Source: Lucinisca nassula (Eukaryota; Mollusca; Bivalvia; Lucinida; Lucinidae). From it: a stretch of 64,000 bases of DNA. The position numbers and the translations under genes were made by a program. This document shows, piece by piece, positions 26,346-61,110 of this stretch. Numbering within the stretch: the stretch's first letter is position 1; each line of letters starts with the position of its first letter. The stretch lies in assembly GCA_963580285.1 (NCBI GenBank), contig OY757014.1, positions 99,326,072 through 99,390,071 on the forward strand, written 5' to 3'. The notes below the pieces were generated by a model. The model searched no databases, had not been told where the DNA came from, and saw nothing but the letters and a program-made list of their open reading frames with translations.

Positions 26346-26394
26346 TTTTGAGTGAGGAGGCCTTCATGCGGACTGAACAAATTATTTGTCTACG

Positions 26395-26590
26395 TAAAAG
26401 TTAGTTATCTCGTTATAACGACTTAATTATCTCGTAATAACGAGTTAATTATCGCGTAATAACGAGATAACTAAGTCGTAATAACGAGATAACTAACTCG
26501 TAATAACGAGATAACTAACTCGTAATTACGAGAAAACTAAGTCGTAATAACGAGATAACTAACTAGTAATAACGAGAAAATTAACTTTGG
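26395..26590. repeat. Palindromic minisatellite (CGTAATAACGAGATAACTAA)n
   Basis: About nine 20-22-bp units. Each unit is itself close to a palindrome (TCTCGTAATAACGAGA), so the array can fold in many registers. Confidence 0.9.
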
Positions 26591-26789
26591 AAGGAAGAAA
26601 TACACCACATAACTGGAAAATATGGAGTGTACATGATTTCTGGGCCAGACTAGCTAGTTTCGGCCATTTAGGCCTCACCAGTGACCTTCAAGTATTTTCA
26701 AAATTCCACAATGGAACCAATGATCCCAAAGGACAAAAACTATACATTACACTATGATGTAGTGATTGAATATAGTTTTAAAAACATAT

Positions 26790-43685: not shown

Positions 43686-45828
43686 TGTAACGGGCCACCA
43701 CCTGGTCGAGCGGTGTGTTGACTGAGACACCTCAGTAGGTCAGGATGTGGTGGTGGCGTCACAATGAATATTTGTGGATTCGACCTGGGTTGAGCTCAAT
43801 ACTACAGGGAAGAGAACATATTACTAACCCTAGTTTCAGTTTTTGATATTTATTGTGATTTTCCCTTAACAATTTGATTCTGCAAACTTAACTAAGAATT
43901 ATGGCAATTAACATTGACATGAGTATTCGGTCAAATAAGCATTCACACAATATGAGATCAGTTAGACAATGCACATCAAGTCTGCATTAACAATTTTAAG
44001 ACGTTCCTATAGCAGGCATTAGTTTGCTTTATACCTTCTATTGTTAATAATGACACAGAAACATTCTAAATAAGTCTGGAAGATGAATGGCTACACGCTT
44101 AAATAACATCAATATGATGCACTTAATTTAATATTTGCATTGTGTAGCAGGCCACACCAATATGCGCGCATCAGATTCCACCTATATACGGGCACAAAAC
44201 GTCACCTATTTCTGCGTACATATGATTCCACTGATATAAGCTAACACAAAGATTAATATATTTTGGCGCATACAAGGTTTTATCTATATATGCGCACACA
44301 AAGCTTCACCCACATAGGCGCACAGCATACTATACATTCAAGTTATAACGTGATTGTGTAAATAATCCACTCAGCTGTTATTCTACTAGCAATAAGGCAG
44401 ACTTCAAAATAACACAAGGGTTATAGAGAGCGTTTGCGTCGTCCAGTGTGTATCTACACACCAATCTAACATTAATCAGTCAGTGCATATAAGTGTTACG
44501 CAAACTGAACAACTCTATACCACTACAAGCATTACTGTGAAGCATCAAACGTACTGTAACTGTGTGAAGGAACTTATACGCTCATATCTGTGGAATGCGC
44601 CTGTGTGGGGGAACTTACGCTCATATATGCAAAAATGCGCCTGTTTGTGTGGAACTTCACTCATATGTGTGGAATGCGGCCGTTAGGGCGTACTCCCGTT
44701 TATTTATGTGCAATGCGTCTAATTATATGACCTTGCGTCTATTTGTGCGAAACTGCACTCATTTATGTGTAATGGGTCGATTTATGTGACTTTGCGCCTG
44801 TTTAAGCGAAACTACGCTCATATGAGTGAAAGACGTTAATTCGACGTTGTACATGCAACAAAACTTTCACCAAAACTTTGAATACATCTATTTATGGTTT
44901 ACAACGTCTAGGACACATTTATTTTATCTAAAAATGTAATAAACAAGACGTACTCGCGGCAAACGGTTTTCACTCATATAAGCGGAGAGATGAAACATGC
45001 GCAAACAGAAATATTCCAGTTTTATAAGTTAGTTACACTATTATTTTAACACTTACTCATAATCATTCAATGAAATTTCACTCACATTTATTACATAAAC
45101 CTGTGCCAACTTTGCCTAAATAAGGGGAGAGATAGCGGAGAGATAGTAAAGGAAAGTGTCCACTCAAATTGTGTACAGTACTCAAGATGGGTGGAGAAAC
45201 AGAAAAGATGAGATCTGCGAATGGTAAAATTATGAGACCTGGCTGGGGCCTTTCTTTGGTCTGGGCATCACTGAAGCTGCTGCTGGTCCACTTAAACCAG
45301 CGCCGATCAGAGTAACTCTGATGTGTGCGTTCTACGTTCTTTTCAGTCTTGGCAAGATACCAAACGTTCCGGTTGCTATCCGTAAACAACAACAAGATTC
45401 TGACAGCAGACGCTCGTATTTATACTATCCAGGCGCGTGCGCTACGTCGCCTAGTTGCCAATCATGCGGAACATTTCGGTCATTACGGTGCGGCTCATTG
45501 TATGAATGTCAACAATGGCCGATCGGGAAAACAAGTTTCTGATGAGGAAGAAACGGAAAATTAAGCAATAAAAAGGGGCTCAAAGGGCAGGACACGGTAG
45601 GACAAGCTTGATATGAGTTAATATTTAGTGATTTAGCGTAGAATTATGTATGACAATGGGTATTTATGCGGTAAATGCTAGGCAAAGTTAGCACACGTTC
45701 GTTCGGCCTTGGAACGATCCGTACCGAAGATAGATGATACTGTATCAAAATTATGCGTGTTTGTCATCTAATTAAACTTTAAACACTGACAGCCATAGGA
45801 ATAACAATAATAGCCAGGTGCCATTACA
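43686..45828 (-). repeat. 3' LTR (left copy)
   Basis: Starts TGTAACGG, ends CCATTACA on the plus strand; 2143 bp. It differs from the right LTR at 44980 (A versus G), 45715 (C versus T) and 45823 (A versus G) as far as I could see. In transcription orientation it would supply the polyadenylation site; an AATAAA lies on the minus strand near 43850. Short ORFs here are identical in both LTRs and not credible genes. Confidence 0.95.
44150..44830. repeat. Oppositely oriented short-repeat arrays inside the left LTR
   Basis: At 44555-44830 degenerate units of the form CTCATATNTGTGGAATGCGC recur six or more times. At 44150-44320 the complementary form (GCGCATATGATTCCAC-like) recurs. The two blocks face each other across ~230 bp and are repeated in the right LTR at 58243-58923. 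The RNA could fold into an extended imperfect stem. Confidence 0.6.
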
Positions 45829-45842
45829 ACAGCCCCCTACCC
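45829..45842 (-). other. Polypurine tract of the LTR element
   Basis: On the minus strand GGGTAGGGGGCTGT stands directly before the TGTAAT start of the 3' LTR, the expected place for the plus-strand primer. Confidence 0.75.
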
Positions 45843-47928
45843 AATAAAGGCATGGACCCCATGAGGAAGGTAAGTAAGCTTTTACATGCAGCTTGGAAAG
45901 TTGGATATTATAACTTATACAGATATTTGAAGGAGGCGACCGGCTATTACTGTTAATCCTTGCCATCTTTTCAAAATATTAAGATATACATATACATGGA
46001 GAAGAACTTGCAAGTTAAACATTTAACACGTAGATTCAAATCAACCTGACACAACCGCAGAAACGTACACAGTATGTTCATAAGACTTAAGATTATCGCG
46101 AAACAGAATACACATAATTATAAAGGTATGAATGAATAACATGCTGGAAAAGCTGAGATATCCGCGAACTTCAACATTAGTTGTAACATCGCGAAAACAG
46201 TAAATCTGCGTACATTTCTACAGGTCATAATAAAGAATGAAACTTCTTAGAGCACTTTTAAGATCATTTGAAATTGTTATAACTTTGACACATTCATGCA
46301 AATGATAATTCATTTACCATATGTTTCAGATAATGGTGACTCAGATTATGAACAATGATTAAGTATTTAGGCTAGAAGCAGCTTCTTTCCACCAACCTAG
46401 GTTCAGAGTGATCTTGGAGGATCACCTGTCACGAGTTCACCCTACACCGAGGTAAGTAAAAGAAATCTGGCCTCTTGTATAATGAATCATCATCAGCACT
46501 CAATTTTCCAGGAAATAGAATAATTTGAAATATCGGCAAATATTTCTCATATAGAAAATGCTCACTTTCTCCCATCCTACATGGCAATAATAGACATTTC
46601 ATATAATCAGTTCAGTTAAATAGCTTGCCATTAATGCCAGGAGAAAAATAGTTAAACATGGCATTTCATTAGACATTAGCAATATAACAATTATGACAGT
46701 TAAACAATGAACTTCCAACAACAAAGGCCCTTGTTTTGAAGTTATTCACCTCATCATACAAGGATCACTGCTTCAATTTCGGGATCTCCAGACCTTTGGT
46801 TAAGTTTTCAAATTGAGGTCCCATCTCTATTTGACCTTAAATGTTGAAGGGATATAAATCTTAAACGCAAATTAACAGTTACCACAACACTTGACAAAAA
46901 TATAAGATCAATAGTTCCGAAGGCTCTGGGATCTGACACACCTCAGGCTGTGTGATAGGAATCCAGAGCCACAGAGTATTTCAGACCACAGAACTTCAGA
47001 TCTTATTTCCTCTTCTGAGAACACATTTTTTTTTTTAGTTTCATATGAAGGGATACACAGCTAAGGTGAGAAAATACACTCCCAGGAGAGTTCCTAATGC
47101 CAAACGGAATAGGTTCTCTTCTATGAATGTATCAAAAAAAATAACTAGTACAGAATTAACTATAACTATATATAGAAATGCATATGGTCAACCCAAATCT
47201 ATGTATCCGCACATGAAATCACATATATACAATGAAAAGGAATTTAGGAACAATACCTTTTCACAGATTAAGAATTTACTTTATATTTCCCACTTAGTAA
47301 GATTTCTGAATTCGGTCAATGAAAGGCTATGCAGAGATAACCTTCACTGAACTATGATATGACATGGTCACTTGTATCTGTCAACTTGTAAACAAGATGC
47401 TAAATTTCATACAACCAATTTACATATGAAAGAAGCCAAAATTTAGACCAAAATACTGACTGTTGCCAATATTTAGATCCAAATATTGACCTTATGGTAA
47501 TGAAATTTTCTTATTATTGGCTGGCTCAAATTTATGAAAACTTTGTAAGAAACAATGGGAAAAAAAAATATTGTATACTTTGACAGATAAAGGACTTCAA
47601 ATATTTCATTGTTGATAATAGCTGTGACAATAAAATTGATCTTATTCTAACCTATCTAATTTAACAAAGTTCATGGTTTTCTTTCCTCTTTGAATGTTCA
47701 CCTTTAATTAGACTCTACAGTTAAGTATATATTATAATTAAATACTGTCTATTTAAGCTGTTATTTAATGTTCATAAACTAAACTCGAAAACACAGTCAC
47801 TGCAGCTCTCCAGGGATAGAATCAGGTACCAGGAACATACTTTTTAAGTCCACAGGTGTAGACTGCAAACATTTTCCATGATATATGACATACCTATGAA
47901 TTAGATATGTCATATACCAGGACGAACT
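45843..47928 (-). other. 3' untranslated stretch of the LTR element
   Basis: About 2.1 kb between the accessory ORF stop and the polypurine tract. No sense ORF of note. One plus-strand (antisense) ORF of 101 codons at 47045-47350 (basic, starting MKGYTAKVRKYTPRR) has no recognisable family. The length is unusual for a Ty3 element and may hold relics of a second accessory gene or regulatory sequence. Confidence 0.5.
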
Positions 47929-50421
47929 TTATGGGTCAGTCAAATGACGAAGTCGCTTCTGCACAATTTTCCTTAAACCCTTGACCCGGTAATATGTACA
48001 CTCACTTTCGAGCTCAATGAGATACCTCCTTTCCCTGGGCAGAACTGTTAAACTGGGAAGCTGACAGTCATTCCTTAAGTAGTAAAGGATTAACCTAAAA
48101 TGTGACGGGTCGCGATCTATAAAGATGCTATTTCCATGAGGGATTATTTTTCTTTCTATTTTAGCCAGCAGTGAATCTGGATCTTTGTGGAGGGTCATGC
48201 GACTTGTCTCAAACCTGACACCACCTATATTCAGAATGAGACGTTTAGTTTGGAGCTTTCGTAAGTTTGTTATTTCTTCATCATCTTCACTGATTTCTTC
48301 TGCTTCAATCTCATCATGTTTTCTCTTTCTATTACTATCCTCTCTAATGTCAGTTTCACGTACTTCTTGATCTTGTCTTTCTGCTTCCCTCTGTCTTTTC
48401 ATGTTTTGTCTTCTTTCTTCTGCTTGTTCTAGACTTATATCAAGTACACTTTCTCTAGATATATTCTCTAATTCCTTTTGAAATCCCTCCTCATATATAT
48501 CATTTGTTTCTTCTTCTATTGCCTGCATTTCTGGAACCAATTCAGAGATTGCATCATTTATTATCTCTGGCAGTATTCTCTTCTGCATAAGTGTAACAGA
48601 CTGCAGACAGAAATCATCCATTCCTTTATCAATTGCTTGAACTAAAGGGCCTTCTGTAATACTTTCGACTGCAGCTATTGTTTCTTTGTCCATCTCTTGA
48701 ACATTAGAATAAGTATTTGTAATGTCTGACATTATTCTATCTAGGAGCAATTCGCTTACAATTTCACCACTGTTTTGTTGATCTTTTGAGTTTTCAGTCA
48801 CATTTAGCTTCTTATTTTCACTTTCCTTATTGATTTCTCTCGTTTTATCATTTTCCACTTGTCTATTTTCATTACAATTCTCCTTTTGATTTTGCTCATC
48901 TTTATTTATCACATCACTAGTTTCCTTTCTATTATTTCCCTTTCCATTCTCTCTATCTTTATCTTTGGTTTGTGTGTTTACTATTTCTTTCTCTTTACAC
49001 TTAGCATTATTCAGATTTGTATTTCTCTCACTGTTAGTTTTATTATCTGCTTTTGTCACAGTCACTTTCTGGAGTTTTCTACCCTCACTTTGCTTTTCAC
49101 TTTGTCTCTCATTTCTGGAGTCTTTCTTTTCATTTTTATTCTGTGTACTTTTCTCCTTTTCAGAATTTCTTATTTTGTGTCTTTCATTTTCTCTATCATT
49201 TCTCTTTTCTTCACAACTTTCTGTTTCTATGACTTGTTTATTTGTCTTACTACCACTTTCCTCGTCTTTCTGTTTTCCTTTTTCGGTTTCTTTCTCCTTT
49301 TCATTCCCTTTCTGTTCACTTTTTGCATTGTTATTTCTATCTTTACTTGCTTTCCTTTGTGTCTCACTTTGTTTGTCTTTACTTTCAACCACTTTATCTA
49401 CACTTATCTTATTACTTATATTTGTTTCCACTTCAACTGTATTATCATCTCTTATTTCATATTGCATTTCATTATCACTATCTTCTTTTCCATTATCATT
49501 TTCAGCTTTCTTATTCTCTCTCTGCTTTTCATCATTACTACATTTTCTTTTCACATTTTCTACTTTCTTATTTTTACTCTGCTTCTCACTATTACTACAT
49601 TTTTCTTTATTTTGCACATTTTCCACATTCTTATTTTTACTCTGCTTCTCACTATTACTACATTTTTCTTTATTTTGCACATTTTCCACATTCTTATTTT
49701 TACTCTGTTTCTCATTACAGACTTTTTCCTTTCTATTCTCATGTTCCACTTTCTTATTTGATCTGTCGCTGCGAGCTCTTGATTTAACATTTATTAGTCG
49801 TTTTGGACTTTCTATTTCAGATTCTGATGCTGATGCAGACTCAGACTCGGAGCTCGACTCGCTGCTTTCACTACTACTGCTGCTTTCTTCATCCGACATT
49901 GATGGGGTGAGGTCAAGATCTGATATGATTGAAGTTCCACTTGATACTGGCTCAAGCTCCAGCCTAGATATCTGTAGCCTGGGTATCTTTGGAGGAGGCT
50001 CATAAAGATTGATATCTTCTGGTTCTTCCAGCTGCACAGATAGAGCAGGTGAGACTGTACTGCTAATAGGAATTTTCCTAGGCCTGGGCTGTCTTGATGG
50101 TTCATTTACTGGTGCTGTATTTATGGGTTCGAGCTCATCCATTGTCTTAACATACCGCCACTTGCTGTCCTGCACCTCGCGAATGAACTTAGTCATCATA
50201 GCTTTCGCTGCATCGCCCCTTTCCCCAGTAATTCGGTGGATGAAAATCATATCATCTTCCCGGACGTCACACGCATGTTTATAATTTCTGCTTGTGAATA
50301 TCATGCTGCACTGTGAACATTGGTAGCCAATGCCTGTGTGTTGGCTCTGCAGGTGTCTCTGAACTTCGTACTTGGTCCGGAAAAATGTATTATTACATAT
50401 CAAGCACAGGTAGTGATGGCC
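47929..50421 (-). CDS. Accessory protein: C2H2-type zinc fingers, charged low-complexity region, C-terminal BTB/T1 (KCTD-like) domain
   Basis: Lies in the env position, sense to pol. Seen in order, with residue 1 at the TTG at 50403: finger 1 just before and through residue 22 (CLIC then HLQSQH), finger 2 at residues 28-44 (YQCSQCSMIF then HAC); an acidic serine run at ~165-195 (DEESSSSSESSESSSESES); a K/E/N-rich region from ~200 to 540 with two near-identical 22-residue repeats; a helical, probably coiled-coil part to ~680; a basic RKRKHDE stretch; and residues 722-821 matching the BTB_2/T1 fold (LILNIGGVRFETSRMTLHK, FIDRDPSHFRLILYYLR, LIELESECTYYRV). T1 domains tetramerise potassium channels and KCTD proteins, some of which are CUL3 adaptors; here a nuclear DNA- or RNA-binding oligomer is inferred. 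There is no transmembrane segment, so it is not an env gene. No ATG precedes finger 1 in frame; the stop TAA is at 50437-50439, and a splice acceptor fits at 50422. Nearly all the long plus-strand ORFs here are antisense shadows. Confidence 0.85.
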   Translation of the reverse strand, partial: GHHYLCLICNNTFFRTKYEVQRHLQSQHTGIGYQCSQCSMIFTSRNYKHACDVREDDMIFIHRITGERGDAAKAMMTKFIREVQDSKWRYVKTMDELEPINTAPVNEPSRQPRPRKIPISSTVSPALSVQLEEPEDINLYEPPPKIPRLQISRLELEPVSSGTSIISDLDLTPSMSDEESSSSSESSESSSESESASASESEIESPKRLINVKSRARSDRSNKKVEHENRKEKVCNEKQSKNKNVENVQNKEKCSNSEKQSKNKNVENVQNKEKCSNSEKQSKNKKVENVKRKCSNDEKQRENKKAENDNGKEDSDNEMQYEIRDDNTVEVETNISNKISVDKVVESKDKQSETQRKASKDRNNNAKSEQKGNEKEKETEKGKQKDEESGSKTNKQVIETESCEEKRNDRENERHKIRNSEKEKSTQNKNEKKDSRNERQSEKQSEGRKLQKVTVTKADNKTNSERNTNLNNAKCKEKEIVNTQTKDKDRENGKGNNRKETSDVINKDEQNQKENCNENRQVENDKTREINKESENKKLNVTENSKDQQNSGEIVSELLLDRIMSDITNTYSNVQEMDKETIAAVESITEGPLVQAIDKGMDDFCLQSVTLMQKRILPEIINDAISELVPEMQAIEEETNDIYEEGFQKELENISRESVLDISLEQAEERRQNMKRQREAERQDQEVRETDIREDSNRKRKHDEIEAEEISEDDEEITNLRKLQTKRLILNIGGVRFETSRMTLHKDPDSLLAKIERKIIPHGNSIFIDRDPSHFRLILYYLRNDCQLPSLTVLPRERRYLIELESECTYYRVKGLRKIVQKRLRHLTDP
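49560..49700 (-). repeat. 66-bp tandem repeat inside the accessory ORF
   Basis: Two almost identical in-frame 66-bp units, with a third partial, encode NKNVENVQNKEKCSNSEKQS-type blocks. The period is divisible by three, so expansion keeps the frame. Confidence 0.9.
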
Positions 50422-50445
50422 CTGAAAATATATGTATTACAATAC
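50422..50445 (-). promoter_or_regulatory. Candidate 3' splice site for the accessory mRNA
   Basis: On the minus strand the sequence ACATATATTTTCAG is followed immediately by GGCCATCACTACCTGTGC, which encodes the start of finger 1. The upstream frame is closed by TAA at 50437-50439 and no in-frame ATG exists between, which argues that translation starts in an upstream exon. Confidence 0.55.
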
Positions 50446-51440
50446 GTGAGAACCATTTCTGTTTCTCTCCTTAAGGGAACTATTTGTTCCTTGAATAGAT
50501 TTCACTCTATAATCGGACATAGACACATGTAGACTTTGGCGATGATCATGTTGAGCTACTGTAAAGTTCAGTAGCTCACAAGCTACCTTCTACATTATTA
50601 AGAAGGAAATGTGCAAAACGATAGTTATACCATAAAACTATCTGCATAGCAAGCACCTTTTCTATCCGTATACAAAGTGAAATACTCAATTTAGTTTTTC
50701 GGCCTATCCCATACAAATGTACCACAATCTTAGAATTTACCTACGTCCCCTTCAAAATTGTTTCACTTATCTCGAGCTGATTACATATCAAATACAGTGT
50801 CAACAAGTATACCTTGAGAAAAACCACCTGACCATTCGTTCCAGAACTTGGCTTCTCACATTGGTGTAAAACTACAAGCTGGCTTGCGCTCAGACTGCCT
50901 GCTTGTCATAAAATGCTATCTATTTCACTTGCCTAGATGCACATTATCTTTAAACACATCAATTTACAAAAATACTTCACACTTCATTTAACTAAGTTTA
51001 AACAGATTTTTATGTTCTTTCCTTGCAGGTGCCCCTGTATCACTGTAGAACCAACAGACAAGATATAAGCATTCCGTTGCACAGCCAAATATACACTTCG
51101 ATTCCTGACAGACCTAAAGATGCGGACTTTTCATCATGAAAATTTCAAACTTCAGGCTCATACAACTACTGAATTGTTAATTCTAATTTTGGAAGCCTGA
51201 GTTTCGTACTTTTAATGTTAGCAAATGATCATACATGTTCATAAACACAATGTAGGAACAGATAAAGGAGAAAATATTAGAGAATCTTAAAGAGGCACAG
51301 TTATAGAAGTCACAGATTTATAGAATAATAAGATAAGCACATGTCAGCACAGGTTAATGTAAAACTTATTTTTAGTATTAAAATAAACACATGCTTTAGT
51401 GACATTATGTACTATTTAAAGAATATATTTGATATTGTTG
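50446..51440 (-). other. Non-coding gap between pol and the accessory ORF
   Basis: About 1 kb with no ORF of note on the minus strand. It probably acts as intron or leader for the spliced accessory mRNA. No convincing short first exon was found by eye; one usable donor-like sequence (GTAG|GTAAAT on the minus strand) is near 50740. Confidence 0.45.
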
Positions 51441-54400
51441 TTAGATTTCCTTACTGGTAAACCATTCTGGCTTGTCTTCCCCTAAGTATGGTTTAAGTTT
51501 GTCATGATGTACGACCATGGGTTTTGTCTTAGGACCAGTTTGAATCCTAAAGAGAACATCGTTCATACATTCTACTACGATCATTGGACCTTTCCAGGGT
51601 CTTTGAAGTTTCGGATTGAAACCTAATTTTCGTTTCGGATTATAATACCACACTGCATCTCCAATTTTATAGGAAATTTTGTGAGCCTTAATATCGTATC
51701 TCCTTTTCATGCTTTCGCTTGAAATATTCAGATGTTTTCGAGCGAAATCATGAATGTCCAGTAGCTTTTCCTCCAACTGATAGGCATGTTCTGTAGCACA
51801 CAGCCTATCTTCTCTTAGTGGTCTACCAAGGGCCATGTCAACTGGCAGAGTCAGTTCCCTACCGAACATCATCATCGCAGGGGAGACCCCTGTACTCTCA
51901 TGAACAGATGACCTGTATGCGAGCATGAGTAGAGGTAAGTGTTCATCCCAGTCATCTTGCTTATCTGAAATGTAGGAGGACATCATGTTTTGAATAGAAC
52001 GATTAGCCCTCTCAACCATGCCATCTGACTGAGGCCTGCGAACGGTAGTTCTAGTCTTATAGATTCCAAGAAGTTTGCATACCTCTTGGAACACTTTTGA
52101 TTCAAAGTTAGACCCTAAATCTGTATGAAGTTGCAAAGGTACTCCAAATATTGATATGAATCTGTTAACTAGTTTAGTTGCTACATAACTAGCTTCTTGT
52201 GTTTTCAGGGGTATCGCATCCACCCATTTGGTAAAATAACAGGACACAACCAAAAGATATTTGTTACCCTTTTTCGAAACAGGGTACGGTCCACTTATAT
52301 CAACTGCTATACGTTCCATTGGATAACCAACGTTGTACTGCTTCATGGGGGCTTTTGCGTATCTATGTGGCATTTTTCTTGACCCACAGGTAGAACAAAT
52401 ACGACACCAGTATGACACATCTTTATACATGTTACACCAGTAAAATCGTTTCTTTATTTTGTCATAAGTCTTTCTTCTGCCTAAATGTCCAGCAGTAACG
52501 GACTCATGTAACTGTCGAAAGACTTCTTTTCTCAAAACTTCTGGCACTAGAATAAGGTATTCAGAATCATTACCAACATCTCTCAACCGTTTCTTGTATA
52601 GTATATTACCTTTTATTTCAATGGTATCCCATTCATGCCAGTATGCCTTGAGTTCTTTTCGATATGGTGCCACTGTAGACCAGGTAGGTTTCTCACCACC
52701 TACTTTCCATTGTAATAAGAGTTTCAGAACAGTATCACTTTCTTGTCTATCTCTTATATTTTCTAGTGTTAACTCTAGACAATCATCTGTCTCTGAACTA
52801 TTAGAAGTGGATTGACCAGATCCACTGATATTTAGACATGCATTTCTATTGCAGTCATTGTAACAGGTGCTTAAATCTTCAATACTATTCATATGATCAT
52901 CGTGATCATTCTGTGGATTATCAAAGTCTGTAGTGTTTCTGTCCATTTTACACTCATGCTCATGTGAACTCCCAGGACTGTCCTCATGAGCCCCGTCTTT
53001 TGTTGCCACGCCTGCGTGAGCAACTTGCATCTTTGTGGAATTTTCCTCTAACTCAAATAAACACCCAAACAATGACTCGTCCTCAGAACGATCCCACCAA
53101 TTTCCACTACTTACTGCTACGTTGCAGCAACATACTTCACCATCAGCTGCCATCCTGCAGCAAAATCTATGTACGTGACGACAATTAATTTTGTGAGCTG
53201 CTTTGAGCTCATCACAAGCGAGATTATCACCTGTATGCGTGAAGGATTGAACCTCGATCTGGGTCATATCAGATGACATCTCCGACGAGAGCACATCAGC
53301 TGCTCCAGGTCCAAAAGAAGTGGTAGTGTGCGCATCGCTACCACTGTCGTCCATACTGTTGGGCCCATAATACACAGGATTTTTCCCCTGGCTTAAGGAA
53401 GATACACGGGTTTTATCTTCCAAGCATAAGGATATGCCTTGTTCGCATTCCTTAAAGCTACCGACGTCGGACAGTGTGATTCTATGATCACCCTCACAGG
53501 TGTTCTCATAGTCACCCCCAATTACGCTTTGAGTGATCCTTTTGTCACTCTCAGAACTGCCTATCTTTAAGGCTGCGTTCTTTATAGCACCTGATTCTTT
53601 TGTCATGATATCGGGATTTGTCAAGATATCGGGATTTGTCAAGATATCGGGTTTTGTCAAGATATCGGGTTTTGTCAAGATATCGGGAAAGTATCGTCTC
53701 TCGTATCGGTCACAGTATTTACAATTATTGTTATAGCATGGTCTACGTGACATTGCATCAGCATTATTATGCACCCTACCTGCCCTGTGTTGGACGGTAA
53801 AGGTGTATGCTGACAGGGTTTCGATCCATCGTGCAATCTGTCCTTCACAATTCTTAAATCGCATAAGCCACTGTAAGGAGCCATGATCCGTTCTAACTGA
53901 AAAGTTTTGCCCTAACAAATAGTGATGGAAATGTTTCACTGCCATTACCACGGCCAGAAGTTCCTTTCTTGTAGTACAATATTGCCTCTCAGATTTGGAC
54001 AAACACTTACTGAAATAGCTAATTACTTTTTCTTCGCCGTTCTGAACTTGCGACAAGACGGCCCCGATTCCAACGTTCGATGCGTCACAATCAAGCACAA
54101 ACGGTTGTCCTTGAAGAAGTGGATAACTAAGAATAGGAGCACTGGTCAATAACTGTTTTATAGTGTCAAATGCATTCTGAGTTTGATCACTCCAAGAGAA
54201 GTGAGTGTCCTTTTCAGTGAGCTTATGCAGAGGTTTACACACAGTTGCAAAGTAAGGTATGAACTTCCTATAATAAGAAGCCAAACCAACAAACTGCCTC
54301 ACTTCTGTAGCGTTCTTTGGCTCCGGCCATTCTTTGACAGCTAGAACTTTTGATGAATCAGTGGCGATTCCTTCCTCAGACACCTCGTGTCCAAGGAAGG

Positions 54401-55943
54401 CGACCTTTCTACACAGCAAACTGCACTTTTTGGGGTTAAGTTTTAGGTTTACTTCTCGAAGTCTTTTTAGAATCACCCTTAGGTTTTCCAAATGTTCTTC
54501 GAATGTCTTGGAAAACACAATTATGTCATCAAGGTATATAAGCAAAATGAGGAAGGTCAGACCAGCAAATACCCTCTCCATCAGGCGTTCAAAAACACTA
54601 GGGGAGTTAATCAAACCGAATGGCAAGACTCGCCATTGCCACAAGCCACTGCCTGGGATAGAGAAAGCAGTTTTAGGCCTGTCCTCCTCGGCTATGCTTA
54701 CTTGATGAAAGCCACTCTTTAAATCTAACGTAGAGAACCAGCTAGAGCCTCCAAGCGCATCCAACGTATCGTCTATTCTTGGTAAGGGGTGGCTGTCGGG
54801 AATAGTAAGCTGATTTAGACGCCTATAATCTATGCAGAACCTAGTTGAACCATCACGTTTAGGCACCAATACAGCGGGTGCACTCCAAGCGGAATGGGAA
54901 GGCTCAATAAGACCCTTTTCCGCCATTGCCTTAATTTCTTTTTCTGCGAAATCTCTTTTAGCAAGTGGAATTCTATATGGCCTCAGTTTCACAGGCTTAC
55001 AATCAGGTAATGTTTTTATAGTATGCTCAACCAAATTAGTGCAGCCTAAATCATGAGAAGATTTTGAGAACTGGTCCTTATACTCGTACAAAAGTGATCT
55101 TAAACTTTTCTTTTGCGATTCGTTTAAGTTTGAGGAACTTTGAAGAATGAGTTCATCAATATGAGGACAAGACTCCGGTTCAAGAGTAGTTTTACTGTTC
55201 ACAGAGTTTACGACCCCAAACTTTTCTATTTCTACTGGCTCATACATTGCAGCTACCATATTTTTGTGAAGCATGCAAGGCTCATTGCTCAGATTCATAA
55301 TGCGCAGTGGGACAGTACCGAACTTAGGATTAACTAAAGCTTTAGCTATCAACAGCCCACTGCGGTCTACAAAACTTTCAGTGGCCTCTATAACACCAAT
55401 GCTACATGTATCAACTCTATCCATTGTGTGACCCAAAATGATGATTTCACACTCAGGCGGGACTTCAACATTCTCATTGATAGCAATTCTACAGCAAGAA
55501 GGTATGATGTCAACACTACTACGATAGCTAGCAATCTTTTCACCATTCAGCAGGATATGATTCTTGCTCAAAAACACATCACACCCATGCTTTGTAAGAA
55601 AATCCATGCCAAGAATTCCATCATTTTTAACATCAGCGAACAGAACATCATGCATTAACAACTGACCACCAAGTTTAATCTCAATTTCAGCTCTGCCAAT
55701 AAAAGGAGATGCTTCACCCGTAGCTGTTACCAGGTGCATATTTACAGGTGTTAAACTAGGGCGCATTTCATATGGCCAATTTTCAAAAACATTTTTGCTT
55801 ATAATAGTGCAGCAGGAGCCAGTATCAACCAGAAGAGCAAGAGGTTTACCTTTAACGTACCCAGCAACAAAATATCCGTCCTCCATGCTTCTTATTGGAA
55901 CATCAGCGGACCTTTTTATCGACGTCGGGTTGTGGTCCCCCAA
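51441..55943 (-). CDS. pol: Pol polyprotein of the Ty3-type element
   Basis: 1500 codons, uninterrupted. Domains by residue: aspartic protease with LLVDTGS at 38-43 and ILGMDF at 110-115; reverse transcriptase ~305-560 with FCIDYRRLNQLT at 369-380, LPFGLINSPSVF at 440-451 and the catalytic YLDD at 470-473; RNase H ~610-735 with VLDCDAS at 616-622, the RKELLA helix and VRTDHGSL; a long linker ~740-1090; integrase zinc-binding H2C2 at ~1144-1186 (HESVTAGH, CRICSTC); catalytic core with the aspartates in AVDISGPY (~1215) and HTDLGSNF (~1275) and the glutamate in VERANRSIQ (~1311); and a C-terminal GPY/F-like module around WKGPMIVV (1450-1457). It matures into the enzymes for Gag-Pol processing, cDNA synthesis and integration. 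The frame overlaps the end of gag by 28 nt in the -1 register, so frameshifting is likely; the TTG given as start is only the frame limit. The linker holds a DILTKP/DILTNP hexapeptide repeat (753-782). Confidence 0.95.
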   Translation of the reverse strand: MGDHNPTSIKRSADVPIRSMEDGYFVAGYVKGKPLALLVDTGSCCTIISKNVFENWPYEMRPSLTPVNMHLVTATGEASPFIGRAEIEIKLGGQLLMHDVLFADVKNDGILGMDFLTKHGCDVFLSKNHILLNGEKIASYRSSVDIIPSCCRIAINENVEVPPECEIIILGHTMDRVDTCSIGVIEATESFVDRSGLLIAKALVNPKFGTVPLRIMNLSNEPCMLHKNMVAAMYEPVEIEKFGVVNSVNSKTTLEPESCPHIDELILQSSSNLNESQKKSLRSLLYEYKDQFSKSSHDLGCTNLVEHTIKTLPDCKPVKLRPYRIPLAKRDFAEKEIKAMAEKGLIEPSHSAWSAPAVLVPKRDGSTRFCIDYRRLNQLTIPDSHPLPRIDDTLDALGGSSWFSTLDLKSGFHQVSIAEEDRPKTAFSIPGSGLWQWRVLPFGLINSPSVFERLMERVFAGLTFLILLIYLDDIIVFSKTFEEHLENLRVILKRLREVNLKLNPKKCSLLCRKVAFLGHEVSEEGIATDSSKVLAVKEWPEPKNATEVRQFVGLASYYRKFIPYFATVCKPLHKLTEKDTHFSWSDQTQNAFDTIKQLLTSAPILSYPLLQGQPFVLDCDASNVGIGAVLSQVQNGEEKVISYFSKCLSKSERQYCTTRKELLAVVMAVKHFHHYLLGQNFSVRTDHGSLQWLMRFKNCEGQIARWIETLSAYTFTVQHRAGRVHNNADAMSRRPCYNNNCKYCDRYERRYFPDILTKPDILTKPDILTNPDILTNPDIMTKESGAIKNAALKIGSSESDKRITQSVIGGDYENTCEGDHRITLSDVGSFKECEQGISLCLEDKTRVSSLSQGKNPVYYGPNSMDDSGSDAHTTTSFGPGAADVLSSEMSSDMTQIEVQSFTHTGDNLACDELKAAHKINCRHVHRFCCRMAADGEVCCCNVAVSSGNWWDRSEDESLFGCLFELEENSTKMQVAHAGVATKDGAHEDSPGSSHEHECKMDRNTTDFDNPQNDHDDHMNSIEDLSTCYNDCNRNACLNISGSGQSTSNSSETDDCLELTLENIRDRQESDTVLKLLLQWKVGGEKPTWSTVAPYRKELKAYWHEWDTIEIKGNILYKKRLRDVGNDSEYLILVPEVLRKEVFRQLHESVTAGHLGRRKTYDKIKKRFYWCNMYKDVSYWCRICSTCGSRKMPHRYAKAPMKQYNVGYPMERIAVDISGPYPVSKKGNKYLLVVSCYFTKWVDAIPLKTQEASYVATKLVNRFISIFGVPLQLHTDLGSNFESKVFQEVCKLLGIYKTRTTVRRPQSDGMVERANRSIQNMMSSYISDKQDDWDEHLPLLMLAYRSSVHESTGVSPAMMMFGRELTLPVDMALGRPLREDRLCATEHAYQLEEKLLDIHDFARKHLNISSESMKRRYDIKAHKISYKIGDAVWYYNPKRKLGFNPKLQRPWKGPMIVVECMNDVLFRIQTGPKTKPMVVHHDKLKPYLGEDKPEWFTSKEI
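53595..53690 (-). repeat. 18-bp tandem repeat in the pol linker
   Basis: Five in-frame copies encode DILTKP, DILTKP, DILTNP, DILTNP, DIMTK. On the plus strand the unit reads AAGATATCGGGTTTTGTC. It lies just after RNase H, within the unusually long spacer. Confidence 0.92.
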
Positions 55944-57332
55944 ACCGACCGATTCCAGTTTCCCTGGTTGTTTTCAAATCTTGTAGGCACGTTTCTGGTA
56001 TTTGTATTACCAAAGTTCCTATCACTATTTTGCCTATTTCTATAATGATCGTTCAAACGCGAACGCGAACCCTGTGAACGCGGATTCTGCACTAACTGGT
56101 CTAAGTAAGATTCATTTCCTCGGCCTTGTTGGTTATTAATAGGTGGCTGACTAGATGAATTTTTCTGTGAAGCAAGCATACGAGGAGGGTTATTTGGATA
56201 GGGTCTACCAAAATTGACGTTGTTCTTAGAATTTTGATTGCCTATTTGCTTTTCATATGAGAACATGCCTTTTGATTTGTTTTGACTAGTCTGCTTTGCC
56301 AGGTCCTTAACATAACTTGTCAGAGCATCCATGGATTTTTGGAGAGTCAGCATGCTATCATTTACCCCTTTATTATGATCATCTTTCTCATGCCTTTTAT
56401 CGGTTTCAATCTGACTAACATTTCGTGAACGTTGCCTATCCGCAATTTTATGGGATTCTAGTCTCAAAGCTGTTCGCTCAGCATCACCAAGAGTCTTGGG
56501 ACCAATCTCTCGAACACGTAAACGGATTTCTGAATCTCTTAGAGCATCAATAAAATGATCAATCGATAGGGTCTCGACCACGTCCTTATTGACTCCTGGG
56601 TATGCCTGACGTACAAGCTTTTTTAACAGCCTGAGCTAACTCTGGTATAGATTCCCCTTTGTTTCTAACTCGAGACTTAAGCTGAGTTCTGTAAATTTCT
56701 GATCTATTTATTGACCCAAATCGGTTGGCTAATTTCTCCACTAAAGTGTCAAAATCGCGCCTACCGTCATAATCGAGCTCACTCAACAGGGACCTTGCCT
56801 CCCCTGTCAAACAATTAGCAAGGTATAGAGACTTTTCTCTATACTGCCATCCGTTTATCTCACATGTGATTTCGAACTGAGATAAAAAGTCGTCAAAATC
56901 TGTCTCTCCACTAAAACACTGGGGTTTGAGTTTAAAATTGGGGTGGTTCGTACTTGAACTGGAGCCAGTGGCAACTGTAGGCGTTACAGTTGCCCCATTA
57001 CACTGGTTTGTTTGAGTAATTGAGGAATTTTCATTTGAGTTTTTCGGAGTAAGATCAGCAACAAGATTGTTGAATTTTGAATTTATTTCAGCAAGTTTCT
57101 GATCCATGTGCTCAGATAAACTCGAAATCGTATTTTTCATCATAGTGCCCATTTTAGTGATTTCAGACTCAAGTTTGCTCTCAAGCATTGACATTTGTAG
57201 AGAGTTTGCAGAACTTGCCAGTGAATTTTCATCACCGTACATATTGTTTTCATTGGTAGTATTTTGTTGAGAAGTCGACTGAGCATTGAGATCTTTCTCC
57301 ATATTAGAGTTATTTAAATTGTTACCTTCCAT
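55916..57332 (-). CDS. gag: Gag of the Ty3-type element, broken by one frameshift
   Basis: First frame 57332-56586 (248 codons, ATG start) holds an N/S/Q-rich N-terminus, a probable coiled coil (~50-90, MLESKLESEITKMG) and a retrotransposon Gag core (FKLKPQCFSGETDFDDFLSQ, then YLANCLTGEARSLLSEL) ending in a stop at 56586. The second frame continues the protein from about 56617 to 55916 (SIDHFIDALRDSEIRLRVRE, later an N/R/Q-rich tail). The frames join at a run of six T on the plus strand (56619-56624; A6 in sense), where one base too many closes the frame. No CX2CX4HX4C zinc knuckle is visible; nucleic acid binding is probably by the basic tail. Gag would form the particle. The shift could be a mutation, an assembly error in a homopolymer, or less likely programmed. 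Confidence 0.85.
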
Positions 57333-57448
57333 TTTTGTTAGTATTATTTATTGCTATGGATTTTTTTTTTTTTTTTTTGTTCTCTTCCACAATAGCAAAG
57401 ACCATACACCAGGATTTTTTAATATTTATGGATTATTTTATTTTCACT

Positions 57449-57672
57449 GGTGGCTGCCAAGGTTCAAATCTATGTCGTCTATTATTTGAATCAGACGGAC
57501 AGGATATCACACTATAAAAACGTACTAGGTGGCTGCCAAGGTTCAAATCTATGTCTTGCACTATTTGAATCAGACCAACAGGATACCTTACTAGGTGGCT
57601 GCCAAGGTTCAAATCTATGTTGTCTATTATTTGAATCGGACGGACAGGATACCTCACTATAAAAACGTACTA
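57449..57672 (-). repeat. Triplicated leader repeat between primer binding site and gag
   Basis: Three units beginning GGTGGCTGCCAAGGTTCAAA (plus strand) at 57449, 57528 and 57594, each followed by an ATTATTTGAATCAGACGGAC-type block. Units 1 and 3 share an extra CTATAAAAACGTACTA segment that unit 2 lacks. Confidence 0.9.
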
Positions 57673-57758
57673 AGATCAGCTGCAAATAACGATTATTATG
57701 TTTCCAAACTGTGTTACGTGCTATATTTCACTCCAGAATTTATTAACTTAACATTCAT

Positions 57759-57775
57759 CCCAATCTCTGACACCA
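57759..57775 (-). other. Primer binding site, tRNA-Leu type
   Basis: On the minus strand TGGTGTCAGAGATTGGG starts three bases after the 5' LTR end. The first ten bases are complementary to the 3' end of animal tRNA-Leu species ending TCTGACACCA; the remainder matches less well. Confidence 0.75.
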
Positions 57776-57778
57776 AAT

Positions 57779-59921
57779 TGTAACGGGCCACCACCTGGTC
57801 GAGCGGTGTGTTGACTGAGACACCTCAGTAGGTCAGGATGTGGTGGTGGCGTCACAATGAATATTTGTGGATTCGACCTGGGTTGAGCTCAATACTACAG
57901 GGAAGAGAACATATTACTAACCCTAGTTTCAGTTTTTGATATTTATTGTGATTTTCCCTTAACAATTTGATTCTGCAAACTTAACTAAGAATTATGGCAA
58001 TTAACATTGACATGAGTATTCGGTCAAATAAGCATTCACACAATATGAGATCAGTTAGACAATGCACATCAAGTCTGCATTAACAATTTTAAGACGTTCC
58101 TATAGCAGGCATTAGTTTGCTTTATACCTTCTATTGTTAATAATGACACAGAAACATTCTAAATAAGTCTGGAAGATGAATGGCTACACGCTTAAATAAC
58201 ATCAATATGATGCACTTAATTTAATATTTGCATTGTGTAGCAGGCCACACCAATATGCGCGCATCAGATTCCACCTATATACGGGCACAAAACGTCACCT
58301 ATTTCTGCGTACATATGATTCCACTGATATAAGCTAACACAAAGATTAATATATTTTGGCGCATACAAGGTTTTATCTATATATGCGCACACAAAGCTTC
58401 ACCCACATAGGCGCACAGCATACTATACATTCAAGTTATAACGTGATTGTGTAAATAATCCACTCAGCTGTTATTCTACTAGCAATAAGGCAGACTTCAA
58501 AATAACACAAGGGTTATAGAGAGCGTTTGCGTCGTCCAGTGTGTATCTACACACCAATCTAACATTAATCAGTCAGTGCATATAAGTGTTACGCAAACTG
58601 AACAACTCTATACCACTACAAGCATTACTGTGAAGCATCAAACGTACTGTAACTGTGTGAAGGAACTTATACGCTCATATCTGTGGAATGCGCCTGTGTG
58701 GGGGAACTTACGCTCATATATGCAAAAATGCGCCTGTTTGTGTGGAACTTCACTCATATGTGTGGAATGCGGCCGTTAGGGCGTACTCCCGTTTATTTAT
58801 GTGCAATGCGTCTAATTATATGACCTTGCGTCTATTTGTGCGAAACTGCACTCATTTATGTGTAATGGGTCGATTTATGTGACTTTGCGCCTGTTTAAGC
58901 GAAACTACGCTCATATGAGTGAAAGACGTTAATTCGACGTTGTACATGCAACAAAACTTTCACCAAAACTTTGAATACATCTATTTATGGTTTACAACGT
59001 CTAGGACACATTTATTTTATCTAAAAATGTAATAAACAAGACGTACTCGCGGCAAACGGTTTTCACTCATATGAGCGGAGAGATGAAACATGCGCAAACA
59101 GAAATATTCCAGTTTTATAAGTTAGTTACACTATTATTTTAACACTTACTCATAATCATTCAATGAAATTTCACTCACATTTATTACATAAACCTGTGCC
59201 AACTTTGCCTAAATAAGGGGAGAGATAGCGGAGAGATAGTAAAGGAAAGTGTCCACTCAAATTGTGTACAGTACTCAAGATGGGTGGAGAAACAGAAAAG
59301 ATGAGATCTGCGAATGGTAAAATTATGAGACCTGGCTGGGGCCTTTCTTTGGTCTGGGCATCACTGAAGCTGCTGCTGGTCCACTTAAACCAGCGCCGAT
59401 CAGAGTAACTCTGATGTGTGCGTTCTACGTTCTTTTCAGTCTTGGCAAGATACCAAACGTTCCGGTTGCTATCCGTAAACAACAACAAGATTCTGACAGC
59501 AGACGCTCGTATTTATACTATCCAGGCGCGTGCGCTACGTCGCCTAGTTGCCAATCATGCGGAACATTTCGGTCATTACGGTGCGGCTCATTGTATGAAT
59601 GTCAACAATGGCCGATCGGGAAAACAAGTTTCTGATGAGGAAGAAACGGAAAATTAAGCAATAAAAAGGGGCTCAAAGGGCAGGACACGGTAGGACAAGC
59701 TTGATATGAGTTAATATTTAGTGATTTAGCGTAGAATTATGTATGACAATGGGTATTTATGCGGTAAATGCTAGGCAAAGTTAGCACACGTTCGTTCGGC
59801 CTTGGAATGATCCGTACCGAAGATAGATGATACTGTATCAAAATTATGCGTGTTTGTCATCTAATTAAACTTTAAACACTGACAGCCATAGGAATAACAA
59901 TAATAGCCAGGTGCCGTTACA
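57779..59921 (-). repeat. 5' LTR (right copy)
   Basis: 2143 bp, TGTAACGG to CCGTTACA on the plus strand, offset 14093 from the left LTR. The promoter is inferred from a TATA box at 59510-59517, placing the cap site near 59494. U3 would then be only ~430 bp and R plus U5 ~1.7 kb. Confidence 0.95.
59510..59517 (-). promoter_or_regulatory. TATA box of the LTR promoter
   Basis: TATAAATA on the minus strand. A TCAG initiator-like sequence lies 21-24 bp downstream (59493-59496). Upstream is GC-richer DNA (GCGACGTAGCGCACGCGC). The same box is at 45417-45424 in the left LTR. Confidence 0.6.
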
Positions 59922-59923
59922 AC

Positions 59924-61110
59924 ATTGCAGTTATGGCCATCACAAGATTATACTTCAGGAGAGATAACTAAAAAAACCAGGGTACTCAGAACTGTGGTTC
60001 TTGTGCATGACATGCCTGCTTAAGTTCATGCATATCTGTACAAAGTACCATCAATATGTCTCAAAGGGTGTTGGAGATCACAAGCTGGTCATACTGTTAT
60101 ATTGGAAGGATAGATAACTCAAATATTTATCATAGCACCCAGAATTGTGGTTCTTAGGCATGAAGCGCCATCTCAACCTTGTATACAATTGTGCCAAGTA
60201 CCATCAATATATCTCAAAGGGTATTGGAATTACGGCCATCAAAAGGTTATATTGTCAGGGGAGATAATTAAAAAACCAGGGCACCCAGAATTGTGGTTCA
60301 TGCACGTGACACAACTGCTTAACCTCATGTACAACTGTACCAAGTGCCATCAATATATCTCAAAGAGTATTGGAGATGTGGCAATCACAAGGTAGTGATT
60401 CTATATTATTGGAAGGGGAGATAACTCAAAAACCATTGCACCCAGAGTTGTGGTTCTTGTACATGACACACCGTATCGGCCTTGTGAACAACTGGGCCAG
60501 GTATCATCAATATATCTTAAAGGGTATTGGAGTTATGGCCATCACAAGGTAGTTGCTCTATTTTATTGGAAGGGGAGATAACTAAAAAAACATGGCAGCC
60601 AGAGTTGTGGTTCTTGTGCATGACACACCGTCTCGGCCTTGTGAACAACTGTGCCAGGTATCATCAATATATCTTAAAGGGTATTGGAGTTATGGCCATC
60701 ACAAGGTAGTCTGTCTATTTTATTGGAAGGGGAGATAACTAAAAAAACATGGCAGCCAGAGTTAAGGTTCTTGTGCATGACACGCTGTCTCAGCCTTGTG
60801 AACAACTGTGCCAGGTACCATCAATATATCTTAAGGGGTATTGGAGTTATGGCCATCACAAAGTAGTCATTCTATTTTATTAAAAGGGGGGATAACTAAA
60901 AAAGTATGGCATCCACAGTTCTGGTTCTTGCGCATGACACGCTGTCTCAGCCTTGTGAACAATTGTGCCAAGAACTATCAATGAATCTCAAAGCGTATAG
61001 GAGTTATGGCCATCACAAGGTTGCGTCTACGGACGGACGGACGGACCGACAGACGGATGGACGCCAGGCTGATCGCTATATCCCCCGAACCTATTCGGTC
61101 GGGGGATAAA
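59924..61110 (+). mobile_element. Pearl-like non-autonomous element: ~157-bp cores, (GGAC)n, terminal hairpin
   Basis: About seven tandem units, each with GGAGATAACTAAAAAAAC, CAGAGTTGTGGTTCTTGTGC, CATCAATATATCTTAAAGGG and GGAGTTATGGCCATCACAAGG; the last four are spaced 157 bp. They are followed by (GGAC)n at 61027-61060 and a hairpin TATCCCCCGAACC-TATT-CGGTCGGGGGATA. Core repeats, tetranucleotide repeat and hairpin are the described plan of bivalve pearl elements, thought to be Helentron-related. The 60-residue ORFs in each unit are shadows because the period is not divisible by three. Confidence 0.65.

What the first reader, a model, noticed from the sequence alone, without database searches (positions are those of the whole stretch)
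43686..59921. Giant, young Ty3 element carrying a zinc finger-BTB/T1 accessory gene in the env position
Seen: a 16.2-kb element with 2143-bp LTRs, full pol and an 824-codon sense ORF after pol with C2H2-type fingers at one end and a KCTD-like T1 domain at the other. Known: some large LTR elements carry extra ORFs and env-like genes, and T1/BTB_2 domains oligomerise channels and KCTD proteins. I know of no described Ty3 lineage with this fusion. Inferred: a captured host-type domain that may give the element a nuclear oligomeric regulator, for example of its own RNA or of host repression.
Basis: partly seen in the sequence, partly recalled or inferred. Interest (0 to 1): 0.92.

Follow-up and report, generated by a model that had tools for sequence, protein, structure and literature searches.

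The report
Mobile element with spliced zinc-finger/KCTD gene
A large virus-like jumping gene in an invertebrate genome carries an extra gene, joined on by RNA splicing, that combines DNA/RNA-binding zinc fingers with a self-assembling KCTD-type domain; many related copies keep it intact, so the element itself probably uses it.

Summary
[quoted passage not shown] KCTD-like by sequence and predicted fold). The fingers are one C2H2 and one C2HC-like motif, below Pfam's cut-off. It is no one-off capture. The window's own 2.9-Gb assembly gives 86 matches. In 17 of 20 fetched loci, from several diverged lineages, the gene follows pol on the same strand; 14 copies of the window's subfamily and 15 of another lie between LTRs. 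Close-pair dN/dS is 0.05 (BTB), 0.10 (fingers), 0.21 overall. It is a 3' exon: all 19 unspliced fetched loci have an AG|GG acceptor, four with a stop codon just before it. One LTR-flanked copy lacks exactly a 1,365-bp GT-AG intron found in its relatives and fuses pol in frame to the gene, at the start of the integrase C-terminal domain. Ten paper searches listed no such element. Function is inferred: a nuclear, oligomeric nucleic-acid-binding factor, acting with integrase or on the element's RNA (as CERV of Cer1 does).

The parts
57779..59921 (-). 5' LTR (2,143 bp; TGTAACGG...CCGTTACA ends; TATA-like at 59517, AATAAA at 59185)
   Evidence: copies of part of this LTR in pairs mostly about 14.1 kb apart across the genome
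57333..57778 (-). leader between 5' LTR and gag, with about two 66-bp direct repeats (57523-57659)
55916..57332 (-). gag region, broken in this copy (248-aa and 221-aa frames); no CCHC knuckle pattern in the three sense frames
   Evidence: (Retrotrans_gag, below cut-off)
51441..55943 (-). pol, 1,500 codons: PR-RT-RNase H-integrase with C-terminal domain
   Evidence: best relative 88% identical
50422..51440 (-). spacer between pol and the accessory exon, inferred part of an intron; ends ...TATATTTTCAG
47929..50421 (-). accessory 3' exon (830 codons from the acceptor to the stop)
   Evidence: no in-frame ATG before residue 40
50266..50421 (-). C2H2 finger and C2HC-like finger
   Evidence: sequence; C-x2-C...H-x4-H visible at the exon start in 19 of 19 loci listed; conservation
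48769..49788 (-). variable K/E/N-rich linker with an in-frame 63-bp repeat (49497-49714)
48319..48768 (-). predicted long helices (residues 546-695), coiled-coil-like
   Evidence: AlphaFold2; blocks 551-690 have pLDDT 55-88
47974..48237 (-). KCTD-type BTB_2 (T1) domain
45832..45842 (-). polypurine tract GGGTAGGGGGC before the 3' LTR; the same boundary motif in 14 of 20 fetched loci
43686..45828 (-). 3' LTR

Best explanation
This is a recent insertion of an animal Ty3/gypsy retrotransposon (host probably a bivalve mollusc, inferred) from a lineage that carries an accessory gene in the env position: a spliced 3' exon encoding zinc fingers, a long disordered linker, a helical stretch and a KCTD-type BTB domain. 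Shown: the exon is present, in the same place, in many insertions of several diverged subfamilies; it is under purifying selection at both conserved ends; an acceptor precedes it in every unspliced locus fetched; and in one subfamily a proviral copy made from spliced RNA joins Pol in frame, just before the integrase C-terminal domain, to this exon. Inferred: the protein is nuclear, assembles into a ring through its KCTD-type BTB, and binds the element's own nucleic acid or chromatin through its fingers. Either it rides on the Pol/integrase product into the pre-integration complex and tethers it, or, released as a separate spliced protein, it escorts unspliced genomic RNA as CERV of Cer1 does. 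I favour the integrase-linked role slightly.
Against: No RNA, localisation or binding data. Only one spliced provirus, from a subfamily other than the window's; at that codon the window has ATT, so the same donor cannot be used there, and its donor is unknown. 3 of 20 loci had no pol match within about 4.5 kb upstream (L028, L033, L034). The finger annotation is below Pfam's cut-off. pol and exon distances agree only in part. Some KCTD chains (KCTD9, KCTD1, SHKBP1) match the profile over only about 60 positions, as Kv does, so the KCTD label leans on KCTD5 and on the fold comparison.
Confidence: 0.6

Rival explanations
1. Rev/CERV-like factor: the exon is the 3' part of a separately spliced nuclear protein whose ring and fingers bind unspliced genomic RNA and carry it out of the nucleus; the Pol fusion in L037 is a by-product.
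For: Cer1's CERV is an env-position, spliced, nuclear protein, modelled as a ring of five or more subunits with a Cys-rich possible RNA-binding loop, and needed for gRNA export (PMC10309623: abstract, found passages and section 15). Here too the exon has no start codon of its own before residue 40, gag lacks a CCHC knuckle, and the L037 donor is not conserved in the window's subfamily.
Against: No gag- or leader-to-exon spliced copy was seen among the copies scored; the one spliced provirus joins pol. No donor was resolved in the window.
Confidence: 0.3
2. Cul3 adaptor: the KCTD-type BTB recruits cullin-3 and the N-terminal part brings in a host silencing or restriction factor for degradation, as viral BTB proteins do.
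For: Close matches include KCTD5, KCTD7 and KCTD13; chains of KCTD5 and KCTD7 listed there were solved with cullin-3. Vaccinia A55 is a viral BTB protein that subverts Cul3 (PMC6484134, search listing with the start of its abstract).
Against: KCTD1, KCTD15 and KCTD16, which also match, are recalled not to act mainly through Cul3; no Cul3-contact residues were tested; zinc fingers are not a known substrate-receptor module for KCTDs (recalled).
Confidence: 0.2
3. Passenger: a host gene fragment carried along without use.
For: LTR elements can carry extra sequence (PMC6431247, passages).
Against: Same position in several diverged lineages and dN/dS 0.05-0.10 at both ends.
Confidence: 0.03
4. Envelope-like gene.
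For: [quoted passage not shown]
Against: No hydrophobic segment (maximum 19-residue mean 1.42 in 26 rows); a BTB domain and K/E-rich linker.
Confidence: 0.01

Closest known systems
Cer1 of C. elegans with its CERV protein (Ty3/gypsy; PMC10309623: abstract, passages, section 15)
   [quoted passage not shown] predicted oligomer; possible zinc-binding loop
   Different: CERV has no reported homology outside nematodes and starts from gag-frame exons; here the domains are C2H2/C2HC fingers and a KCTD-type BTB, and the one spliced copy joins pol. No sequence comparison with CERV was run.
Bdelloid rotifer LTR retrotransposons with captured ORF3s (PMC5408684, passages)
   Same: Diverse extra ORFs downstream of pol, made from spliced messages
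   Different: Those are GDSL esterase, DEDDy exonuclease, env-like or TM/CC types; 'BTB' and 'zinc' do not occur in the main text
Orchid Ty3 elements with an m6A-demethylase domain (PMC9289625, listing and start of abstract only)
   Same: A captured functional domain fixed in a Ty3 lineage
   Different: Different domain and hosts
KCTD proteins (KCTD5, KCTD13, KCTD15, KCTD1)
   Same: BTB_2 fold
   Different: Cellular proteins; zinc fingers at the other end and a place inside a retrotransposon are not known for them (recalled)
KCTD1 isoform b / Crypton (PMC3212892, passages)
   Same: A KCTD BTB domain joined to transposon-derived sequence
   Different: The reverse case: a host gene gained transposon sequence
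Chromoviruses (Ty3 with an integrase chromodomain; recalled)
   Same: Extra module at the integrase C-terminus
   Different: Constant chromodomain rather than a spliced zinc-finger/BTB exon; Pfam named no chromodomain in this pol

Membership tests
Ty3/gypsy LTR retrotransposon | PR-RT-RNase H-integrase order | tested here: met
Ty3/gypsy LTR retrotransposon | LTR pair with TG...CA ends and a polypurine tract | tested here: met
Ty3/gypsy LTR retrotransposon | target-site duplication | tested here: not met
   flanks do not match in the window copy; may reflect recombination or decay; other copies not examined
Ty3/gypsy LTR retrotransposon | tRNA primer binding site | not tested
   sequence after the 5' LTR was read but not matched to a host tRNA
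BTB_2 / KCTD-type BTB | profile match above cut-off | tested here: met
   59.1 bits against 21.4; 14 of 14 family members match BTB_2 at E up to 1
BTB_2 / KCTD-type BTB | KCTD rather than Kv T1 | tested here: met
   profile: KCTD5 over about 100 positions, Kv about 60-68, but KCTD9, KCTD1 and SHKBP1 also only about 60; fold: best Z for KCTD15, KCTD13 and KCTD1 (12-13.4), Kv1.3 9.5; the BTB model has mean pLDDT 65.5
BTB_2 / KCTD-type BTB | oligomerisation | not testable with these tools
   inferred from the domain
C2H2 zinc finger | Pfam match above cut-off | tested here: not met
   zf-H2C2_2 16.1 bits against 40; ligand spacing visible in 19 of 19 loci listed (a pattern scan of the protein rows found it in 6 of 14, the others starting inside or after the finger)
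CERV/Rev-like export factor | spliced product with the env-position ORF as its 3' part | tested here: met
   acceptor in 19 of 19 unspliced fetched loci; spliced provirus L037
CERV/Rev-like export factor | nuclear and needed for gRNA export | not testable with these tools
   needs an experiment
CERV/Rev-like export factor | sequence homology to CERV | not tested
   no comparison run
Cul3 adaptor | binds cullin-3 | not testable with these tools
   needs an experiment
Envelope protein | transmembrane segment | tested here: not met
   maximum 19-residue Kyte-Doolittle mean 1.42 in 26 rows, 23 distinct

The most novel reading that the evidence does not exclude
Alternative splicing lets one retrotransposon make two integrases: the normal one, and one whose C-terminal domain is replaced by zinc fingers and a ring-forming KCTD-type BTB, a swappable cassette that tethers the integration complex to chosen chromatin. 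The cassette is exchanged between element lineages by recombination (near-identical pol with very different exons in L024 and L036), so lineages could change target preference by changing cassettes.
Probability: 0.22. Interest if true: 0.93.

Novelty: new variant of a known kind. Interest (0 to 1): 0.76.

Why it matters
Extra genes in the env position of LTR retrotransposons are known, but few (recalled) have a recognisable fold, evidence of selection and a natural record of how they are spliced. This one has all three, in a multicopy family with young copies. It gives a directly testable case of a retroelement using a KCTD-type protein, and an intron-less provirus that fixes a splice junction without RNA data. 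If the Pol fusion is functional, it is a new way to change an integrase's C-terminus. The zinc-finger/BTB pairing also recalls host chromatin factors, so it bears on how elements meet host silencing.

Tried and rejected
Relatives by scan: genome contigs with the ORF (29 pattern matches, none confirmed) and with a pol alignment (66, none); viral contigs with the ORF family alignment (295, none) and pol (53, none); phage records by tblastn of the ORF (none); plasmid records by tblastn of pol (3 records, all under 60% identity, not pursued). Rfam at gathering threshold on the window: none.

First exon of the window's own transcript: not resolved. Donor scans with an approximate, recalled weight matrix give several phase-0 candidates in pol and none that stands out. 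The best-scoring site (53779) lies inside pol but in another frame. A plain gag-start junction is out of frame. The 9-mer AAA|GTAGGT used in L038 recurs in phase 0 at pol residue 1080 in the window's subfamily and 1439 in L029-L032; this may be chance (Lys-Val-Gly codons).

Results against a simple story: (1) pol and exon distances agree only in part (rho 0.55 over 16 rows, 1 of 2000 permutations as high). L024 and L036 have near-identical pol (94% DNA) but very different exons; nine copies match the pol half at 98-99% and the exon half at only 86-90%. I read this as cassette exchange. (2) The fingers of L001 and L005 differ strongly at silent sites (dS 1.0) while the middle does not (0.05), again a mosaic; this pair's whole-gene dS (0.10) is in the close-pair set. 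(3) Between subfamilies dS is saturated in most pairs (BTB: 7 of 209 finite), so those ratios are not used. (4) In one search, a protein-level test for fewer changes at the ends, 5 of 11 pairs had p<0.01; 4 in the expected direction, 1 (P0010-P0011) in the opposite one, probably because P0011's C-terminus diverges. (5) In L024 pol ends about 1.7 kb, not about 1 kb, before the exon, with a short inverted pol piece between.

Rows dropped: dN/dS used 23 of the 29 extracted exon rows; L030, L034 and L039 were left out as interrupted under 700 codons, and L021, L022 and L023 as duplicates of L002, L003 and L006. Tree work used 16 rows. One search scored 55 of 14,141 first-look candidates, so its counts are lower bounds; one search scored 40 of 71, 40 of 142, 40 of 508, 17 of 17. 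Two of the 14 LTR-bracketed copies of the window's subfamily (C22 and C17:12.97 Mb) have one LTR match only in pieces. In three of the 14 split loci (C2, 43.27-43.32 Mb) the second half starts 8 bases before the junction.

Pol lineage: not assigned to a named Ty3 clade; no reference set was at hand.
Full report
WHAT IS THERE. Window 43686-59921 holds one LTR retrotransposon on the minus strand. Its LTRs (2,143 bp) differ at 3 positions, so the insertion is young. pol is a single open frame of 1,500 codons with protease, RT, RNase H, integrase zinc-binding domain, catalytic core and C-terminal domain. gag is split into two frames in this copy and has no CCHC knuckle pattern. About 1 kb after pol comes the 824-codon ORF. 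Its C-terminus is a BTB_2 domain (E 5.6e-16). Its N-terminus holds a C2H2 and a C2HC-like motif that Pfam does not score above cut-off. Between them lie a K/E/N-rich linker and predicted long helices.

IT IS A FAMILY. Two protein searches (11 proteins; 2 more) gave relatives P0001-P0013, all with BTB_2 (14 of 14 including the window). Both ends are conserved (window against relatives that cover them: fingers 52-93%, BTB 53-84%) while the linker is not (21-58%). The best pol relatives (120 of 2,685 hits listed) include proteins filed under Ca. Thiodiazotropha, a symbiont of lucinid clams (recalled), presumably host contamination; together with named mollusc hits (Patella, Pinctada, Ruditapes) this suggests a mollusc, perhaps bivalve, host. 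That is inference; named non-mollusc hits are in the list too.

IT SITS IN THE ELEMENT, MANY TIMES. The window's assembly (2.93 Gb) gives 86 matches to the ORF: nine copies without stops in the window's own subfamily (the window included), decayed copies, and several other lineages at 28-56% identity. I fetched 20 further 10-kb loci. In 17 of 20, pol lies upstream on the same strand, with 56-99% identity to the window's pol: 0.74-1.16 kb before the exon in 15, about 1.7 kb in L024, fused in L037. L028, L033 and L034 showed no pol in the stretch fetched (L033 carries an insertion of about 3 kb). In 14 of 20, including those three, the same polypurine-tract/LTR boundary motif follows the exon by roughly 1.5-3.1 kb. 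A search with part of the LTR shows LTR matches on both sides of 14 exon copies, two of them in a tandem LTR-element-LTR-element-LTR array on C9.

IT IS SELECTED. For 23 exon copies, pairs with dS 0.01-0.25 give summed dN/dS 0.21 overall (40 pairs), 0.10 for the fingers (21), 0.05 for the BTB (26), 0.34 for the middle (41) and 0.43 for the helical part (35). Pairs are not independent. The tandem repeats in the exon (63 bp) and in pol (18 bp) have periods divisible by three, which fits a maintained frame.

IT IS A SPLICED EXON. In the window there is no in-frame ATG before residue 40. In all 19 unspliced loci of the 20 fetched, the exon begins right after YAG, then GG, in the same phase; in L024, L033, L034 and L038 the codon before it is a stop. 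L037 (C10) is the key: against L038 (97.8-99.1% identical) it lacks exactly 1,365 bp that start with GT and end with TAG, and pol (...KIPYK) runs in frame into the exon (GFHYQCLKC...) as a 2,257-codon frame. A junction search found this copy once, and 14 loci in which both halves are present but separated at that point. Part of an LTR fetched 3' of L037 (L041) occurs on both sides of L037 (13.3 kb apart), and on both sides of all 14 unspliced loci (14.3-15.5 kb apart in 10, 11.9-22.7 kb in 4). So a spliced RNA was reverse-transcribed and integrated as an LTR-flanked copy. The junction falls just before VGDAVWYY, which I take as the start of the integrase C-terminal domain (Pfam's Integrase_p58_C follows at window residues 1452-1485). 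The window's subfamily has ATT where the donor GT would be, so its own donor lies elsewhere and is unresolved.

CASSETTE EXCHANGE. pol and exon distances over 16 rows correlate (rho 0.55) but not cleanly. L024 and L036 share near-identical pol and carry very different exons; nine copies match the pol half at 98-99% but the exon half at only 86-90%. I infer recombination that swaps exons between lineages.

HOW IT MAY WORK. Shown: conserved exon, in-frame splicing to Pol in one subfamily, selection, KCTD-type BTB, no membrane segment. Inferred: an oligomeric nucleic-acid-binding protein acting in the nucleus. The Pol fusion suggests delivery with integrase and a tethering role; the closest described analogue, CERV of Cer1, suggests export of unspliced RNA (PMC10309623); the KCTD kinship also allows Cul3 recruitment. 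No experiment here separates them.

IN PRINT. Ten searches of the open-access library listed, by titles and abstract starts, no Ty3 element with a BTB or KCTD domain; longer result lists were seen only in part (18 of 20, 20 of 27, 20 of 50), and subscription papers and Repbase were not searched. Passages of a mollusc LTR-retrotransposon survey (PMC6238403: 'zinc finger', 'accessory' and 'additional ORF' do not occur) and of an annelid survey (PMC8556966: no 'BTB', no 'zinc') mention nothing similar. Extra ORFs in this position are known (rotifers, PMC5408684, passages; the review PMC6431247, passages; orchids, PMC9289625, listing only). I therefore call it a new variant of a known kind.

Noticed in passing
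59971-61021: 157-bp tandem satellite (about 5-7 diverged copies) starting 50 bp from the 5' LTR; the other flank shows no clear match to it.
   Followed up: partly
26377-26596: 22-bp palindrome-rich tandem array.
   Followed up: no
6015-41103: Dispersed SINE-like copies (families of 6-7) with the core GTCCCCGTCAACACTGTAAAGGTCATTTTGGAGACG, on both strands.
   Followed up: no
10077-11847 (minus): ORFs that look like remnants of another retroelement (recalled resemblance, Penelope- or DIRS-like); Pfam names nothing above cut-off.
   Followed up: partly
44244-44821 and 58337-58914: Degenerate 26-59-bp repeats inside the long LTR; possible protein-binding array, untested.
   Followed up: no
G000:C9 133802644-133831619: Tandem array of two elements sharing LTRs (three LTR matches, two exon copies).
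   Followed up: partly
L001 against L005, exon residues 1-98: Finger region with dS about 1.0 beside a middle with dS about 0.05: mosaic exon.
   Followed up: partly
L024 and L036: Near-identical pol with very different accessory exons.
   Followed up: partly
P0015, P0029, P0035: Ty3 pol proteins filed under Ca. Thiodiazotropha, probably clam DNA in symbiont assemblies.
   Followed up: no
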